Origin: Rubritalea profundi
Lineage (GTDB): Bacteria; Verrucomicrobiota; Verrucomicrobiia; Verrucomicrobiales; Akkermansiaceae
Direction of reading: 5' to 3'
Assembly: GCF_002954445.1 (NCBI RefSeq)
Contig: NZ_MQWA01000001.1
Location: 3,989,043 to 4,053,042, forward strand
Length of the DNA stretch: 64,000 bases
Both the position numbers and the translations under genes were made by a program. The notes beneath the pieces were generated by a model. That model saw only the letters and a list, made by a program, of their open reading frames with translations, made no database searches and was not told the origin of the DNA. This document shows positions 2 through 8,738 of this stretch, piece after piece (position 1 is the first letter of the stretch; the number at the start of each line of letters is the position of its first letter).

Positions 2-1465
2 AGGTTAATATACTACAGTAGCTCTGATCAAGATTTCCCTAAAAAGATTGGAGAGCTTAAAATTGGCGCCTTTGACTTTACGCAAGGTAGGCCTCCATTA
101 GACACGGAGTTTGAATCATTTCCTGATCACTATTTTTCTTTAGGGCAAGAAGACACTTATTATGAAAATCTAAATGAAATAGGTGACACATACAGAGCCG
201 AGGCCCTCATAGCCTTAAGAGACATAGCAGCAAATGACTCTATATATCAAGAAGTCAAAGAATTAGAGATCACTAAAATTTCTGTAACTAGAGGTGTGAA
301 AGAGTCTTGGATTCTTAATCAATTCAGACGCATGACTAAGGGGGCAGCCCGACTCACGGAATATGACTTTCTATATAATCTACCAAGGGCTAGAGGAGAT
401 CAAAGCTCGGGTAGAACGCTATCGTTTGTGGTCAAACCCGAGTCGTTACCGCCATCGAACATTCACGTTCTGATAGGTAGAAACGGCGTAGGCAAGAGCC
501 GTACGCTAAACAAGATGGCAAAATCTCTGATCTACCCATCAAGGTCTGCAGCTCAACACGGAAATTTCGTTACGAGGACTGGAAGCAGAATGCAAGCTGG
601 CAACTACCTATTCTCTAACTTAGTTTCTGTCAGTTTTAGCGCTTTCGATGATTTTGACCTCTCAGCTGAAGACTCCGAACTGACTTATAAATATATAGGC
701 TTACGCAGGACTAGCAATCGAGGAGCGCCAGTGGGCACCCCGAAAAGCCCAGATATGCTTGCAAATGATTTCCATGAAAACTTTTGCGCTTGTTCGGCAG
801 CTTCAGCTAAAACGAGAAGATTAAAATTGGTCATAGAGAGACTATCCAATGATACTCTCTTCGCATATACGAACCCTCTATGCCTATTTGAGATGTGGGA
901 GAGTCATAAACCAGCCGTCGACACACCTGAAGCATGGTCTATAGCAAATGAAGGTCATAGACTCGAGGTATGTAAGTGGTTTAAAAAACTTAGTTCAGGG
1001 CACCAAATTATACTTCTAACCCTCACGGCTTTAGTTGAGCACACGGAAGAGAAGACACTAGTTCTACTTGATGAACCAGAAGGTCACCTCCATCCCCCTC
1101 TCATTGCAGCATTTATTAGAGCTCTCTCGGACTTGCTCACAGACCGAAACGGCGTAGCTATTGTAGCTACTCACTCCCCTGTAATTTTACAAGAAGTTCC
1201 AAAAAGCTGTGTCTGGAGAATGGATAGATATGGAGCTGATGTTAGCTTAAGCCGACCCACGATTGAAACATTCGGTGAAAACACAGGTATATTAACTCGG
1301 GAAATTTTTGGGATAATCGTCGATCAAGCCGGCTTTCATTCCTTACTCGAGCAGGCCGTGGATAATTTCGTTTCGTTCGATGAAGCTATGGAAGATTTTA
1401 ATGGCTCACTAGGGTTCGAAGCTCAAGCGATCTTAAGAAACCTATTCGCGACTAAAAATCAATAG
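2..1465 (+). CDS. AAA/ABC-type ATPase, Septu PtuA-like (5' end outside window)
   Basis: The reading frame is open from the first bases, so the N-terminus lies to the left and 487 residues are visible. Walker A is GRNGVGKS near visible residue 159. Walker B is LVLLDEPEGHLHPP near 355, followed by a switch histidine in ATHSP. This is the OLD/RecF-like ABC ATPase pattern of AAA_15/AAA_21 defence ATPases. The stop is 3 bp before an HNH nuclease gene, the arrangement of Septu (PtuA + PtuB) and of retron-associated ATPase-HNH effectors. Family knowledge: the ATPase senses infection or nucleotide state and controls the nuclease. The gene is visibly more A+T-rich than the genes from 2.3 kb onward, which fits recent transfer. 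Other defence ATPase families are possible. A GTG at 296 gives a shorter frame but the upstream codons look coding. Confidence 0.75.
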   Translation, partial: RLIYYSSSDQDFPKKIGELKIGAFDFTQGRPPLDTEFESFPDHYFSLGQEDTYYENLNEIGDTYRAEALIALRDIAANDSIYQEVKELEITKISVTRGVKESWILNQFRRMTKGAARLTEYDFLYNLPRARGDQSSGRTLSFVVKPESLPPSNIHVLIGRNGVGKSRTLNKMAKSLIYPSRSAAQHGNFVTRTGSRMQAGNYLFSNLVSVSFSAFDDFDLSAEDSELTYKYIGLRRTSNRGAPVGTPKSPDMLANDFHENFCACSAASAKTRRLKLVIERLSNDTLFAYTNPLCLFEMWESHKPAVDTPEAWSIANEGHRLEVCKWFKKLSSGHQIILLTLTALVEHTEEKTLVLLDEPEGHLHPPLIAAFIRALSDLLTDRNGVAIVATHSPVILQEVPKSCVWRMDRYGADVSLSRPTIETFGENTGILTREIFGIIVDQAGFHSLLEQAVDNFVSFDEAMEDFNGSLGFEAQAILRNLFATKNQ

Positions 1466-1468
1466 TCT

Positions 1469-2323
1469 ATGATCAAATTCGAGCTTCCTCCTATTAGCGC
1501 AATCGAGAGCTATGAACTATGCATCAGTAAAGTCAGAGTCATGCAGTCTCAGCCTGACCTGAAAGTTAGGTTCGAGTCTATTGCTCAAGAAATCAATACC
1601 CGTGAGAACACATACATTGATCATGCCCCTAAGTATGATCTACACCTCCTACCTAAGGATGAAGTAGCTATTGGATCAGTTACCAATAAAGAGCTTGTAA
1701 AAGTCTACACCGATAGGATGGCGAAAGAAAAGGCTGCAGGCTACTCTATATATTCTCGAATTATGGTCACTCAAGGCGACCTAAAAATGTGTCCGTATTG
1801 TGGTACACGCCCCTTCAACACTCTAGATCACTTCCTACCTGAAAGCCGCTACCCAGCATACGTTGTTACTCCATGTAACCTAATCCCCTCATGTTCAGAG
1901 TGCAACAAAGAGAAACATGCTGATGTTCCGAGCTCTCAAAATGATCATTACATTCACCCCTATTTCGACGATGACACGAGTTCTGAATGGGTAATAGCCG
2001 AGCTTGATGCTACATGGTCTGCTGTTTCATACAGAACTACCTCGCCAACTCATTGGTCACCTGAACAACTAGCCAGAGCTCAACACCACTTTGATCAACT
2101 CAAACTTGCAGAATTATATGCAACGTACTCAGCTGATGAGCTAGCATGTCAAAAACTCACTCTCACCAGCCTAACTGAAACAGCCGGTATAGATATTACT
2201 AGGCTTCACTTAGAGAAGCAACTTGAGGCAGCTCGATCAATTAACGTAAACAGTTGGAAAGCCCCTTTATACAGGGCTATTCTAAACTCCTTGCCTGATT
2301 TCCTTGAAGCTCTGTCGGACTAA
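1469..2323 (+). CDS. HNH endonuclease, Septu PtuB-like
   Basis: A 284-residue protein with a zinc-finger HNH core at about 108-146: CPYCG, then the catalytic-type DHFLP, then NLIPSC and CSECN. This CxxC...DHxxP...N...CxxC spacing is typical of the PtuB/retron-associated HNH family. The start is 3 bp after the ATPase stop, so the two are surely co-transcribed. The predicted role is the DNA- or RNA-cleaving effector of the ATPase-nuclease pair in the cytoplasm. The N-terminal 100 residues are helical and probably contact the ATPase (inference). A+T-rich like its partner. Membership of the HNH family is near certain; assignment to Septu rather than another ATPase-HNH system is an inference from gene pairing. 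Confidence 0.78.
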   Translation: MIKFELPPISAIESYELCISKVRVMQSQPDLKVRFESIAQEINTRENTYIDHAPKYDLHLLPKDEVAIGSVTNKELVKVYTDRMAKEKAAGYSIYSRIMVTQGDLKMCPYCGTRPFNTLDHFLPESRYPAYVVTPCNLIPSCSECNKEKHADVPSSQNDHYIHPYFDDDTSSEWVIAELDATWSAVSYRTTSPTHWSPEQLARAQHHFDQLKLAELYATYSADELACQKLTLTSLTETAGIDITRLHLEKQLEAARSINVNSWKAPLYRAILNSLPDFLEALSD

Positions 2324-2325
2324 TC

Positions 2326-2661
2326 ATGATCTCCCACGCAAAAACCATCCAGATATTCCTGCCCGACGGTAACCCGCGAGGTATGAAGATCGCCGAGTTC
2401 ACCAGCCGCACAATCCAAGCCGTACAGGTGCCACGCACCCAGCTAGAGCTAGCACTCAAACGCTCTGAGCTTGCGAATGTCGGCGTCTACTTCCTCTTCG
2501 GCGACACGACACCCGGCAAGCTCACCCAGCTCTACATCGGCGAAGCTGAAGACTGCGGCACACGTCTCAAACAACACAACAAGCAGAAGGACTGGTGGAA
2601 CGTAGCGCTGGTGTGCATATCCAAGACCATGGAGTTCACCAAGGCGCACTTCAGAGAATAG
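2326..2661 (+). pseudogene. GIY-YIG nuclease family protein, N-terminal fragment
   Basis: The translation begins MISHAKTIQIFLPDGNPRG and runs through VGVYFLFGDT and LYIGEAEDC, the GIY-YIG core (here GVY...YIG), as in the family of about 280-300 residues that ends in a DUF4357 domain. The frame stops after 111 residues at AHFRE, where intact relatives continue. The stop codon arises from the inverted repeat that starts at 2656. A C-terminal scrap of the same family survives at 3131-3178. The middle of the gene, roughly 170-180 codons, is gone, so this is a broken gene. GIY-YIG genes of this type often sit inside type I restriction loci, which fits hsdR downstream. A retained nuclease fold in the fragment cannot be excluded. 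Confidence 0.75.
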
Positions 2662-3125
2662 TGAATGATGAGGATTGAATGGTGAAAGCTAGGACGATGA
2701 AGCAGAAGCATGAAGAGTGAAATCTAGGACGATGAAACAAGGAAAAGACATACAGGAGCGCTCCTTTGAGTTTGCAGCACGCGTGGTGAAACTTTGTCAG
2801 AAGTTGAATGATTCTCCAGGCGTTTCGCGCACGCTTTCTAACCAACTTCTCCGATCAGGAACCTCTGTTGGTGCCAACATTGAGGAAGCACAAGGCAGCC
2901 AAAGCAAACGCGACTTCACGGCTAAAATGTCTATTGCCTGTAAAGAGGCCCGCGAGACTCACTACTGGCTGCGGCTACTCATTAAATGCGATATCATTGC
3001 CGAAGCTCAGCTCTCAGGCTTGCTCGACGAATCCAACCAACTTGTCGCCATCCTCACCACCATTGTAAAAAATTCCCGCGAAGCCTAACTTCCATTCACT
3101 TTTCAATCTTCACCATTCACTCTTC
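2656..3125. mobile_element. Four-helix-bundle ORF unit with 31-bp imperfect terminal inverted repeats
   Basis: The stretch 2656-2686 matches the reverse complement of 3095-3125 at about 26 of 31 positions (core GTGAATGATGAGGATTGAA against GTGAATGGTGAAGATTGAA). Between the repeats lies only the S23/four-helix-bundle ORF. On the left the repeat begins exactly where the GIY-YIG gene breaks; six bases right of the right repeat the tail of that same gene resumes. A near-direct repeat, GTGAAA(G/T)CTAGGACGATGAA, also occurs at 2682 and 2717, just before the ORF. I read this as a small inserted unit that came with, or caused, loss of the central part of the host gene. No transposase is present. Confidence 0.55.
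2732..3088 (+). CDS. Four-helix bundle protein (S23 / 23S rRNA intervening-sequence type)
   Basis: A 118-residue, all-helical protein. It carries the family signature RSFEFAARVVKLCQKL, then QLLRSGTSVGANIEEAQG, a KARETHYWLRLL-like segment (KEARETHYWLRLLIKCDII) and a C-terminal helix. This is the pentameric four-helix-bundle family first noticed inside 23S rRNA intervening sequences, related in fold to the Avd protein of diversity-generating retroelements. Its function is unknown; RNA or nucleic-acid binding is suspected. The ATG at 2732 is preferred over a GTG at 2717 because the family motif starts just after it. It lies inside an inverted-repeat unit that disrupts a GIY-YIG gene. Confidence 0.85.
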   Translation: MKQGKDIQERSFEFAARVVKLCQKLNDSPGVSRTLSNQLLRSGTSVGANIEEAQGSQSKRDFTAKMSIACKEARETHYWLRLLIKCDIIAEAQLSGLLDESNQLVAILTTIVKNSREA

Positions 3126-3130
3126 TATTG

Positions 3131-3178
3131 TACCCAGACGGCAAGACACTGGATGAAGTGAAGCGGAAGAACAGCTAA
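3131..3178 (+). pseudogene. C-terminal remnant of GIY-YIG/DUF4357 gene
   Basis: The frame reads YPDGKTLDEVKRKNS followed by a stop. This resembles the extreme C-terminus of DUF4357 (a W-x-x-x-DGKTLDE-like ending) found in full-length GIY-YIG proteins related to the fragment at 2326-2661. It is in a different frame from that fragment and directly follows the right inverted repeat, so it marks the far side of the disruption. Confidence 0.55.
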
Positions 3179-5603: not shown

Positions 5604-8600
5604 ATGTCCTACACCGAAGACCATCTCGTCGAGCAACCCGCCATAGCTATCCTGAAAGACCAGCTTGGCTGGGAGTACCTGAATTGTTACAGCGAGACAT
5701 TCGGTGAGGCTGGCACGCTCGGGCGCAAGACGAAGCATGAGGTTGTGCTAAAGAGCCGACTACGCGCCGCTCTGGTCAGGCTCAACCCAGCCGTCCCGGA
5801 AGAAGGTATCGACCAGGCGCTAGAAGAACTTCCACGCGATCGCTCGGCACTGAGTCTAGTAGAAGCGAACCGAGAAATCTATCACCTGCTGAAGGAAGGC
5901 GTGAAGGTCAAGGTCACTGACCCGGCAAACCAGCAGCAGGAAACCAAACAGGTGGCAGCTATCGACTGGAGCACGCCTGAGAACAACGACTACTTCCTCA
6001 CCTCCCAGCTCTGGGTGGAAGGTGAGCACTACACCAAGCGCCCGGACTGCGTAGGCTTTGTCAACGGACTCCCTCTCGTGCTGATGGAGTTCAAGAAGCC
6101 GAGTGTCCGCGTCAGCGAAGGGTTCAACAAGAACATCAAGGACTACAAGTCGAGCATCCCGAAGTTGTTTCACTACAATGCCTTCATCCTAGTCTCCAAT
6201 GGAGTGGAGAACAAACTAGGCAGCCTGACTGCGCCGTGGGAGCACTACAACGACTGGAAGAAGGCGGCGAGTGAGAGCGAAGAACCGGAAACCAGCTTAG
6301 ACAATTTACTGATTGGCACATGTGAGCCTAGCAGGCTGATCGATCTACTAGAGAGCTACACGCTCTTTTCCGAGAGCAAGGGCACGGTCAACAAGCTAGT
6401 CGCGCGTAACCACCAGTTCCTCGGAGTGAACCGCACCGTGGAAGCTCTGCAAACGACCAAGGACCACCGGGTCGGTGTATTCTGGCACACCCAGGGCTCA
6501 GGCAAGAGTTACTCGATGGTGTTCTTTGCTGAGAAGGTTTTCCGTAAGATAGCAGGCAACTGGACCTTTGTGATTATCACCGACCGCAAGGAACTCGATA
6601 AACAGATTTACCGTACCTTTGCTACTTGTGGTGCTGCACGTGGTGTCGAGTGCCACGCGGAGAACTCCAAGCAACTACGCACGCTGCTAGGACAGGACCA
6701 CCGTTACGTGTTCACACTGATTCACAAGTTCCGTACCGAACCCGGCGAGACACACCCAGTGCTCTCCGAGCGCGACGACATTATCGTGCTCACTGACGAA
6801 GCGCACCGCAGCCAGTACAACACGCTCGCGATGAATATGCGCAGCGCTCTGCCGAATGCTAAGTTCGTCGCCTTCACCGGCACACCACTCATCTCTGGAG
6901 AAGAACGGACGAAAGAGGTCTTCGGTGAATACTCAAGTGTCTACGACTTTAAACAATCCGTCGACGATGGCGCGACTGTCCCCCTCTACTACGAGAACCG
7001 CACGCCTGAGCTAGAGATCACTAACCCAGATCTCAACGAGGAAATCTACGATGTCATCGAAGATGCCAACCTCGACGAAGATCAGGAGAAGAAGTTGGAA
7101 CTAGTCCTTGGCAAGAAGTACCACCTTATCACCCGGGACGACCGGCTCGAAAAGATCGCCAAAGACATTGTCCACCACTTCCTCAACCGTGGCTACCAAG
7201 GTAAGGCTATGGTGGTATCCATCGATAAGCTCACCACACTGAAGATGTACCACAAGGTTCACGACGAGTGGTTAGCCGAGACCGAACGTGTCCGCACCAA
7301 GGTTCTAGCCATGAGCCCGCAGTCACCTGACTACGCAGGACTCCACGCACGCCTCACTATCCTCACCGATACCGACATGGCTGTGGTCGTCTCGACCGGT
7401 CAGAACGAAGTCGAGGACATGAAGAAGCACGGCATCGATATGCGACCGCACCGTGAGCGCATCATCAAAGAGGATCTAGAAGAACGCTTCAAGGACCCCG
7501 AGGACAATTTCCGTATCGCCTTTGTCTGTGCGATGTGGCTGACCGGCTTTGACTCTCCTAACTGCTCGACTCTCTATCTCGACAAGCCGATGCGTGGTCA
7601 CACGCTGATGCAGACTATCGCCCGTGCCAACCGGGTCTATGGCGACAAGATGAACGGACTCATCATCGACTACGCCAACGTCTTCCAGGAACTTGAGAAA
7701 GCACTGGCGATCTACGGCACAGGCAGCAAGGGCGGTGAGCTCCCAGTGAAGGATAAGACTGAGCTCGTCGAGGCCCTCACGATAGCACTAGAGCAGGTTG
7801 CTGATTTTTGTAGTAAACAAGGCGTTAGTCTCAGTGACGTTCAGCAAGACACGCAGAAGCACTTCTATTCGGCGGTCAACTCACTGCTGAAGAACGACGA
7901 GATCAAGGACAATTTCCTAGCGCAAGCTACCGACGTCAACAGGCTCTACAAGGCTGTGATGCCAGACCCGATCATTCCGACTCTCGCCCCGACTTGCCAG
8001 GTCATCAGTGAACTAGCTAAAGCCATCCATGCCACGAAGCCGCTGGTAGACATCTCTCAAGTGCTCGATGACATCAGCAGTAAGCTCGACTCCTCCATCA
8101 TCGCTGAGCCCCAGCTAGAGCCCGGTGCTGTAGCCAAGACTGTCGACCTCAGTAAGATCGACTTCGAAGCGCTAGAGAGCAAATTTGAACAGACTCCGAA
8201 CAAGAACACCGAGACGCAGAAGCTCCGGGCGCTCATCGAGCAGAAGCTTGATAAGCTGATCCGCCTGAACAGCACGCGCCACGACTACCTAGATCGCTTC
8301 CACAAGATGATCGAAGACTACAACAACGGTGCCCACAGCATCGAAGAACTCTTCGAGCAACTCGTCAACCTATCCAAGGAACTCAACGAGGAAGAACAGC
8401 GCCACATGCGCGAGAACATCAGCGAGGAAGAACTCGCGGTGTTCGACATCCTCACTCGCCCGGGTCCAGACCTAAGCGATGCTGAAACCACAGCGATCAA
8501 GAAAGTCTGCCGTGATATGCTAGCCAAGCTCAAGACCGAGAAGCTAGTACTCTCCTGGCGTCAGAAGCGCACAGCCAGAGCAGCAGTGCGTATCGCCATC

Positions 8601-8738
8601 GAGGAGATGCTCGATGCCGGCCTCCCAGAGAAGTACACTATCGATCTGTTCGAAGCCAAGTGCGGAGCCCTCTACCAACACGTCCTCCAGAAGTACCCCG
8701 ACACCGGAGAAAGCGTCTATGGTGGGCACGTGGCGTAG
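5604..8738 (+). CDS. hsdR: Type I restriction enzyme, R (endonuclease/translocase) subunit
   Basis: A 1044-residue protein of full family length. The N-terminal nuclease has RPD near 146 and MEFKK (ExK) near 160, a PD-(D/E)xK site. The superfamily 2 motor has Walker A TQGSGKS near 295-301, LTDEAHRSQY (DEAH-box) near 395 and FTGTP near 423. The C-terminal helicase lobe has MRGHTLMQTIARANRVY and a helical tail for binding the methylase core. It cuts unmodified DNA after ATP-driven translocation when joined to HsdM2S. hsdM and hsdS are not visible; in such loci they commonly lie upstream with accessory genes between S and R, so they are probably left of the window. The region is richer in G+C than the ATPase-HNH pair. 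No strong ribosome-binding site precedes ATG 5604. Confidence 0.95.
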   Translation: MSYTEDHLVEQPAIAILKDQLGWEYLNCYSETFGEAGTLGRKTKHEVVLKSRLRAALVRLNPAVPEEGIDQALEELPRDRSALSLVEANREIYHLLKEGVKVKVTDPANQQQETKQVAAIDWSTPENNDYFLTSQLWVEGEHYTKRPDCVGFVNGLPLVLMEFKKPSVRVSEGFNKNIKDYKSSIPKLFHYNAFILVSNGVENKLGSLTAPWEHYNDWKKAASESEEPETSLDNLLIGTCEPSRLIDLLESYTLFSESKGTVNKLVARNHQFLGVNRTVEALQTTKDHRVGVFWHTQGSGKSYSMVFFAEKVFRKIAGNWTFVIITDRKELDKQIYRTFATCGAARGVECHAENSKQLRTLLGQDHRYVFTLIHKFRTEPGETHPVLSERDDIIVLTDEAHRSQYNTLAMNMRSALPNAKFVAFTGTPLISGEERTKEVFGEYSSVYDFKQSVDDGATVPLYYENRTPELEITNPDLNEEIYDVIEDANLDEDQEKKLELVLGKKYHLITRDDRLEKIAKDIVHHFLNRGYQGKAMVVSIDKLTTLKMYHKVHDEWLAETERVRTKVLAMSPQSPDYAGLHARLTILTDTDMAVVVSTGQNEVEDMKKHGIDMRPHRERIIKEDLEERFKDPEDNFRIAFVCAMWLTGFDSPNCSTLYLDKPMRGHTLMQTIARANRVYGDKMNGLIIDYANVFQELEKALAIYGTGSKGGELPVKDKTELVEALTIALEQVADFCSKQGVSLSDVQQDTQKHFYSAVNSLLKNDEIKDNFLAQATDVNRLYKAVMPDPIIPTLAPTCQVISELAKAIHATKPLVDISQVLDDISSKLDSSIIAEPQLEPGAVAKTVDLSKIDFEALESKFEQTPNKNTETQKLRALIEQKLDKLIRLNSTRHDYLDRFHKMIEDYNNGAHSIEELFEQLVNLSKELNEEEQRHMRENISEEELAVFDILTRPGPDLSDAETTAIKKVCRDMLAKLKTEKLVLSWRQKRTARAAVRIAIEEMLDAGLPEKYTIDLFEAKCGALYQHVLQKYPDTGESVYGGHVA

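What the first reader, a model, noticed from the sequence alone, without database searches (positions are those of the whole stretch)
2326..3178. Four-helix-bundle ORF inside 31-bp inverted repeats replaces the middle of a GIY-YIG gene
The GIY-YIG N-terminus stops exactly at one repeat and its DUF4357 tail resumes beside the other. The S23-like ORF between has no transposase. S23 proteins are known from 23S rRNA intervening sequences, so a version behaving as an insertion in a protein gene could be a new type of mobile unit.
Basis: partly seen in the sequence, partly recalled or inferred. Interest (0 to 1): 0.7.

Follow-up and report, generated by a model that had tools for sequence, protein, structure and literature searches.

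The report
S23 gene units with heptamer arms
A small gene of unknown use, flanked by matching mirror-image strings of 7-letter repeats, sits in the middle of a broken nuclease gene, and the same kind of unit, with different repeats each time, turns up between genes across many bacterial phyla and is present or absent at exact sites in closely similar plasmids, so it looks like a little-known kind of mobile DNA.

Summary
An S23/four-helix-bundle ORF (TIGR02436) lies between 32-nt inverted arms (27/32 paired) inside a GIY-YIG/DUF4357 gene that keeps its first ~110 and last ~16 codons; about 165 codons are gone. It is one of a class. Around 77 S23 ORFs of related genomes and 79 from many phyla, flanks carry period-7 arrays, and left and right arms match each other locus by locus far more than mismatched pairs or other genes do, plainly in about half of the relatives. 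Arm sequence differs between copies but follows the S23 protein lineage even across phyla (0/1000 permutations). Similar cyanobacterial plasmids with and without the unit show ORF plus both arms as one block (428/414, 417, 506 bp; three clean sites); an arms-only unit interrupts an S23 gene. One operon site holds, by species, an intact unit, a damaged S23, arms only, nothing, or a GxxExxY-nuclease ORF. GxxExxY ORFs share the layout with period-9 arms. I read it as a mobile S23-arm unit, of which the 23S rRNA intervening sequence is one case. The inserting enzyme is unknown; a resident reverse transcriptase is not required. Ten searches of the held library found no paper linking S23 outside rRNA to such arms.

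The parts
2326..2661 (+). 5' remnant of a GIY-YIG/DUF4357 (PADLOC PDC-S14-like) gene; ends at a TAG inside the left arm
   Evidence: PF01541 E 0.0013, below its cut-off; PDC-S14 positions 15-120 of 301; alignment with intact homologues
2655..2686 (+). left inverted arm, imperfect heptamers (TGAATGA/TGAATGG type)
   Evidence: 27/32 pairing with the right arm
2676..2739 (+). two 29-nt direct repeats (86%), overlapping the end of the left arm and the S23 start
2732..3088 (+). S23 / four-helix-bundle ORF (118 aa from ATG; GTG start at 2717 also possible)
   Evidence: TIGR02436, PF05635; AlphaFold pLDDT 95.2, four helices; Foldseek 2rld TM 0.85-0.89
3095..3126 (+). right inverted arm
3128..3178 (+). 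3' remnant of the same GIY-YIG/DUF4357 gene, LYPDGKTLDEVKRKNS and stop

Best explanation
It is one copy of a mobile unit of about 410-510 bp made of one S23/Avd-like four-helix-bundle ORF between inverted arrays of heptamers. ORF and both arms are present or absent as one block. Arms go with the S23 lineage rather than with the site, so I infer that each S23 protein (a pentamer in a solved relative) recognises its own arms, as DNA or as the RNA hairpin. Units persist mostly in short gaps between genes; the arms can form a hairpin in the transcript, as in 23S rRNA IVSs where RNase III cuts it, which would make insertion tolerable. Over time the arms turn over while left and right stay complementary; S23 can decay or be lost, leaving arms. 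Here a unit landed in a candidate defence nuclease gene, and about 500 bp of the gene were lost with or after the insertion. Shown: architecture, generality, block presence/absence, arm-protein coupling. Inferred: binding of arms by S23, RNA-level tolerance, that the differences are insertions rather than losses. Unknown: the enzyme that does the insertion.
For: Left/right arm matching: relatives n=77, own 18.8 vs mismatched 10.3, own right flank the best of all for 39/77; multi-phylum n=79, own 16.8 vs 10.8, best for 21/79. Other ORFs in the same loci: 3/132 non-adjacent and 11/268 in all exceed the threshold that 36/76 S23 exceed; in the named set 1/333 other ORFs against 14/84 S23 (before N-filtering). 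Period 7: lag-7 match 0.358 and 0.374 vs 0.276 in 336 control flanks. Arms follow the S23 protein across phyla: similar arms in 7/548 pairs below 40% identity and 46/154 above 65%, 0/1000 permutations, unchanged after GC correction. Empty sites in plasmids at 92-99% identity: 428/414, 417 and 506 bp inserts holding ORF and both arms. Arms-only 182-bp insert inside an S23 gene. Same ribonucleotide reductase operon gap: intact unit, damaged S23, arms only, empty, or a GxxExxY ORF. Concerted arm turnover: there own pairing averages 18.9, cross-species 10.0, although S23 at the site is one clade. dN/dS 0.09-0.14 in 4 pairs.
Against: No enzyme of movement is known; S23 has no catalytic motif that I could name. 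No consistent target duplication: GTAAT (5), none exact, ATG (3) at the three clean sites; three further plasmid sites are replacements or align poorly. Gain and loss are not polarised at most sites; the nrd-site S23 clade looks vertically inherited. 41 of 77 relatives' and 68 of 79 multi-phylum S23 ORFs do not pass the 99th-percentile arm threshold one by one, among them two of the own genome's five (L002 and L004, score 11 each). At the nrd site 2 of 10 units (L055, L064) have weak own pairing. dS exceeded 1.2 in 3 of the 4 usable pairs and was saturated in 4 others. The window copy has no close empty-site partner.
Confidence: 0.65

Rival explanations
1. Host-useful operon device, not a mobile element: S23 and its hairpin arms process or tune the operon transcript and are inherited vertically; absences are losses.
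For: S23 at the ribonucleotide reductase site of 9 genomes form one clade; purifying selection; recurrent sites lie in conserved operons: ribonucleotide reductase, S-adenosylmethionine synthetase, gyrase, Hsp70, NADH dehydrogenase (families checked); arms co-evolve.
Against: Whole-unit presence/absence among similar plasmids, including site B2 where 1 plasmid has the unit and 4 shown do not; arms-only insert in an S23 gene; unit inside a nuclease gene here; same arm dialect in different phyla.
Confidence: 0.2
2. RNA-mediated spread: S23 works like Avd of diversity-generating retroelements, carrying the excised hairpin RNA to a reverse transcriptase in trans.
For: PHROG Avd model hits a cyanobacterial S23 at 3.4e-10; the S23 model resembles Avd chains in 4dwl and DGR complexes, TM 0.72-0.78 for the better chains; PF05635-Avd likeness noted in PMC10053308 (one passage); upstream gene co-directional 67/69 vs 50/64 controls in relatives; reverse transcriptase in 26/43 S23-positive vs 2/15 S23-negative genomes.
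Against: 17/43 S23-positive genomes, among them single-contig G040 with 7 S23 and G029 with 3, have no RVT_1 match; no orientation excess in the multi-phylum set, 56/71 vs 40/53; genome size confounds the association; no Avd hit for the window S23 and Foldseek E for Avd only 0.2-0.5; other Avd chains fit worse (TM 0.53-0.62).
Confidence: 0.2
3. DNA-level movement in trans by an IS200/IS605-type Y1 (RAYT) transposase acting on the arm hairpins, as for REPINs.
For: Y1_Tnp in 42/43 S23-positive and 10/15 S23-negative genomes; hairpin ends; no transposase in the unit.
Against: The Y1 gene near an S23 unit in L072 has REP-like hairpins unlike S23 arms; arms are long, period 7 and lineage-specific; S23-positive G037 has no Y1 match; genome size confounds.
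Confidence: 0.15
4. Two unrelated things: heptamer repeats are ordinary intergenic repeats (STRR-like) and S23 merely sits between them.
For: Heptamer arrays without S23 exist (L214, L258); heptamer repeats are in print without mention of S23 (PMC4692102, PMC4679880; term searches and passages only).
Against: Left-right matching is nearly confined to S23 and GxxExxY ORFs; arms are inside the inserted block; arms follow the S23 lineage.
Confidence: 0.05

Closest known systems
23S rRNA intervening sequence (IVS) with S23 ORF (Leptospira, Coxiella)
   Same: S23 ORF in sense orientation, inverted terminal stem, heptamers before the ORF (GACAGAT repeats in the Coxiella IVS, PMC4990558 section 16 passage), ~430 bp
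   Different: Here in protein-coding DNA and gaps between genes, not in rRNA; arms differ by lineage; several copies per genome; plasmid empty sites
REP/REPIN with RAYT (Y1) transposase
   Same: Hairpin-type ends, arms-only units, link between a protein lineage and its repeats (the last from recall)
   Different: No nuclease in the unit; arms are period-7 arrays; the hairpins of the Y1 gene in L072 are unrelated
MITEs and IS elements
   Same: Terminal inverted repeats, block insertion, sometimes a short direct duplication
   Different: No transposase, arms not shared between copies of a genome, no consistent target duplication
Avd of diversity-generating retroelements
   Same: Family and fold likeness of the protein
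   Different: No reverse transcriptase next to the unit; resident RT not required
Intergenic heptamer repeats (STRR of cyanobacteria, TAACTGA of Beggiatoaceae, GGGAATC of Xanthomonas/Nostoc)
   Same: Period 7, intergenic, sometimes convergent pairs (PMC4692102 passage)
   Different: In print as repeats; the two papers term-searched do not mention S23

Membership tests
S23 / TIGR02436 / PF05635 protein family | profile score above cut-off | tested here: met
   103.3 bits vs 24; 84.8 vs 33.8
S23 / TIGR02436 / PF05635 protein family | four-helix bundle fold as 2gsc/2rld | tested here: met
S23 / TIGR02436 / PF05635 protein family | homopentamer | not testable with these tools
   pentamer stated for the Xanthomonas protein in PMC4990558 (introduction); not predicted here
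23S rRNA IVS | located in helix 9, 25 or 45 of 23S rRNA | tested here: not met
   window copy lies in a GIY-YIG gene; no rRNA match in the 10 of 80 named loci searched
23S rRNA IVS | inverted ends able to form a stem around the ORF | tested here: met
23S rRNA IVS | excision of the RNA by RNase III | not testable with these tools
   needs RNA work
DNA transposon / IS | encoded transposase | tested here: not met
   the only family match in the unit is S23
DNA transposon / IS | fixed-length target site duplication | tested here: not met
   5, 0 and 3 bp at three clean sites
REPIN/RAYT | REP-type hairpins shared by copies in a genome | tested here: not met
   arms differ between the copies of the own genome; hairpins of the Y1 gene in L072 unrelated
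DGR accessory protein Avd | sequence or fold likeness | tested here: inconclusive
   PHROG Avd hit for L128 S23 (3.4e-10), none for the window S23; TM 0.72-0.78 for the better Avd chains, E 0.2-0.5
DGR accessory protein Avd | adjacent reverse transcriptase | tested here: not met
   RVT_1 matches of the own genome lie ~1.29 Mb and ~1.27 Mb from the unit

The most novel reading that the evidence does not exclude
A previously unrecognised class of mobile elements without transposase, in which a small non-enzymatic protein (S23 with period-7 arms) or a small PD-(D/E)XK protein (GxxExxY with period-9 arms) is coupled to its own lineage-specific inverted repeat arrays, spreads through gaps between genes across phyla, and of which the 23S rRNA IVS is only the best-known outpost.
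Probability: 0.4. Interest if true: 0.9.

Novelty: new variant of a known kind. Interest (0 to 1): 0.75.

Why it matters
What S23 proteins do and how rRNA intervening sequences move is still called unclear in the 2016 paper on the Coxiella IVS (discussion). That S23 ORFs go with their own lineage-specific heptamer arms, between genes in many phyla and with exact empty sites in similar plasmids, turns both into direct tests: does S23 bind its arms, as DNA or RNA, and what inserts the unit? It may also explain part of the heptamer repeats reported between bacterial genes, and it gives GxxExxY proteins a context.

Tried and rejected
Considered and rejected: chance or low-complexity arms; S23 as part of the defence locus (the window S23 has no PADLOC match); arms as REP hairpins; an obligate resident reverse transcriptase. 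Led nowhere: S23 in phage records (one query, no match); Rfam on ten of the 80 named loci (one tRNA only); GxxExxY on plasmids (8 records, no empty site pursued). Only the PDB was used of the structure libraries. Paper searches.

Corrected on the way: the first arm-protein correlations were inflated by masked N runs in L145, L165 and L172 that matched each other; they are replaced, which drop units with N in either flank (3 of 159). (84 ORFs) was made before that filter. Phylum labels are mine, read from record titles; one search merges the Desulfobacterota names and leaves out the three loci titled only 'bacterium' (76 units in 16 groups). The orientation excess holds for the relatives only. 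The GxxExxY ORF at the ribonucleotide reductase site of G020 (L217) scores only 11 for arm pairing over 160-bp flanks; its arms were read by eye. Which species lack arms at that site (G001, G003, G011) was also read by eye. A note of mine says six genera for the nrd clade; one search shows four.

Full report
What is in the window. At 2732-3088 lies an ORF of 118 codons (a GTG start at 2717 is also open) that belongs to TIGR02436 (7.9e-30) and PF05635 (5.8e-24), the S23 or four-helix-bundle family. AlphaFold gives four helices at mean pLDDT 95.2; the closest solved structures are 2rld (TM 0.85-0.89) and 2gsc (TM 0.76-0.82); chains of Avd from diversity-generating retroelements come further down (0.72-0.78 for the better ones, others 0.53-0.62, E 0.2-0.5). 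It is bounded by inverted arms 2655-2686 and 3095-3126 (27 of 32 positions). Outside the arms stand the two ends of one gene: a GIY-YIG N-terminus and the last residues of a DUF4357-type tail. Intact homologues aligned are about 290 aa, and the PADLOC model PDC-S14 is covered only at 15-120 of 301, so roughly 165 codons are missing.

It is one of a class. The own genome has five PF05635 copies. Reading the other four with flanks showed short repeat arrays around each, of different sequence; three of the five (L001, L003, the window copy) also pass the inverted-arm threshold, L002 and L004 do not. Of 58 genomes, the own one included, 43 have the family. Of 76 S23 ORFs with both 160-bp flanks, 36 have left and right flanks that match each other in inverted orientation above the 99th percentile of mismatched pairs, against 3 of 132 non-adjacent other ORFs and 11 of 268 other ORFs in all in the same loci. 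After dropping units with N in a flank (3 of 159), relatives n=77: own 18.8, mismatched 10.3, own right flank the best partner in 39; named set n=79: own 16.8, mismatched 10.8, best partner in 21. So the arms are plain in about half of the relatives and in fewer of the named set. The flanks have period 7: match at lag 7 is 0.358 (relatives) and 0.374 (named), 0.276 in 336 control flanks; lags 14 and 21 are raised too.

Arms go with the S23 lineage. Copies in one genome have different arms, while similar arms recur with similar S23 proteins in different phyla. Over 76 units in 16 groups and 2535 between-group pairs, an arm similarity of 18 or more is seen in 7 of 548 pairs below 40% protein identity and 46 of 154 above 65%; Spearman 0.28, 0.29 after allowing for GC difference, 0 of 1000 permutations as high. 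Homologous neighbours were not excluded in that call, only same-group pairs. This is what recognition of the arms by the protein, or long joint travel, would give.

Arms turn over in concert. S23 units between the small and large chain genes of ribonucleotide reductase (families checked) in nine genomes of four genera form one clade (support 97/92), yet their arms are of several unlike kinds. Within that site (10 units) left-right pairing is 18.9 on average within a genome and 10.0 between genomes, with two weak units (L055, L064); at the S-adenosylmethionine synthetase site (7 units) 20.6 and 10.9. In the own genus the first site holds an intact S23 (G002, G004, G006, G010), an S23 with stops (G005) or matched only in part (G009), two facing arrays with no S23 (the window's own genome, L214), or nothing that I could see (G001, G003, G011); in G020 of the same family it holds a GxxExxY ORF. 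Four S23 pairs gave dN/dS 0.09-0.14, three of them with dS above 1.2; in four others dS was saturated.

Block presence and absence. S23 occurs on 32 plasmid records (one query). Three sites give clean pairs. Site A: Trichormus variabilis and Scytonema plasmids carry 428 and 414 bp that the four fetched of six listed conjugative plasmids lack (junctions of four; the three pairs aligned are 98-99% identical outside the block); GTAAT stands once in the empty and twice in the filled site; a seventh plasmid (L228) has a shortened S23 there. Site B: 417 bp in Nostoc C052 and ATCC 53789, absent from three compared relatives at 92-95%; no exact duplication. Site B2: 506 bp with another S23 and other arms in one plasmid, absent from the two compared by alignment and from two more shown; 3-bp duplication. 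In each the block holds the ORF and both arms. Three further sites (D, E, F), and site C, are filled against empty but the empty side has other sequence in place or aligns poorly, so they are not counted as clean. In Nostoc N6 a 182-bp unit with heptamer arms and no S23 ORF interrupts the S23 gene, with no evident duplication. Which side is derived is not proven; site B2 with one filled plasmid favours gain.

A sister architecture. Among the control ORFs the three non-adjacent ones above threshold were a Y1 transposase and two PDDEXK_3 (GxxExxY) proteins. GxxExxY ORFs, present in 41 of 58 genomes, have own flank pairing 20.1 against 10.4, 15 of 31 above the 99th percentile, but period 9 instead of 7, and their arms resemble S23 arms far less often than each group resembles itself (0.75% against 5.3% and 6.0% of pairs at 18 or more). 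The Y1 transposase has REP-like hairpins.

How it may work. Shown: architecture, generality, arm-protein coupling, block presence/absence. Inferred: S23 binds its arms; the arm hairpin in the transcript lets hosts tolerate the unit, as RNase III does for rRNA IVSs (PMC4990558: abstract, introduction and discussion read, passages of the results; that IVS has GACAGAT heptamers before its S23 ORF). Unknown: the inserting enzyme. S23 ORFs follow a co-directional gene in 67 of 69 relatives' cases against 50 of 64 controls, but in 56 of 71 against 40 of 53 in the named set, so orientation is not a general rule.

What is known. S23 in 23S rRNA IVSs, the likeness of PF05635 to Avd (PMC10053308, one passage) and intergenic heptamer repeats (PMC4692102 and PMC4679880, passages only) are in print; the last paper even considers a repeat-binding protein as the mobile part. 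In ten searches of the held open-access library (listings seen, and the papers named here opened) I found no paper that links S23 ORFs outside rRNA with such arms, or GxxExxY with arms; papers of subscription journals are mostly not held. I rate it a new variant of a known kind, with a fair chance that the whole class deserves its own name.

Noticed in passing
window 296-2323: AAA ATPase and HNH pair matching PADLOC PDC-M01A/PtuA and PDC-M01B, directly before the broken GIY-YIG gene (PDC-S14), with a type I restriction R subunit at 5604-8738: a likely defence island.
   Followed up: partly
L037 8743-9144, L039 549-947, L095-L124: GxxExxY (PDDEXK_3) ORFs have the same inverted-arm layout with period-9 arms, and several lie within a few kb of S23 units.
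   Followed up: partly
L214: Own genome, ribonucleotide reductase site: two facing heptamer arrays with no S23 between them, where related species have S23.
   Followed up: partly
L239 1022-1600: S23 gene of a Nostoc plasmid interrupted by an arms-only unit with the same heptamer dialect.
   Followed up: yes
L073 3967-4330: Near relative of the window S23: unit placed at the start of what reads by eye like an HsdR frame, apparently restarted inside the right arm.
   Followed up: no
L001, L002: Two S23 units of the own genome, 58 kb apart, lie between GDP-sugar enzyme genes (L001 neighbours checked, L002 by clustering) but have different arms and are not sister sequences.
   Followed up: partly
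window 2693-2740, L104, L109, L072, L214: A short motif like CACGATGAAGC or AGGACGATGAAGC recurs by eye in intergenic DNA of this genus, also beside units.
   Followed up: no
L224 and L245: S23 units sit inside CRISPR-Cas operons on cyanobacterial plasmids (cas10-S23-cmr3, cas6-S23-cas4; record annotation).
   Followed up: partly
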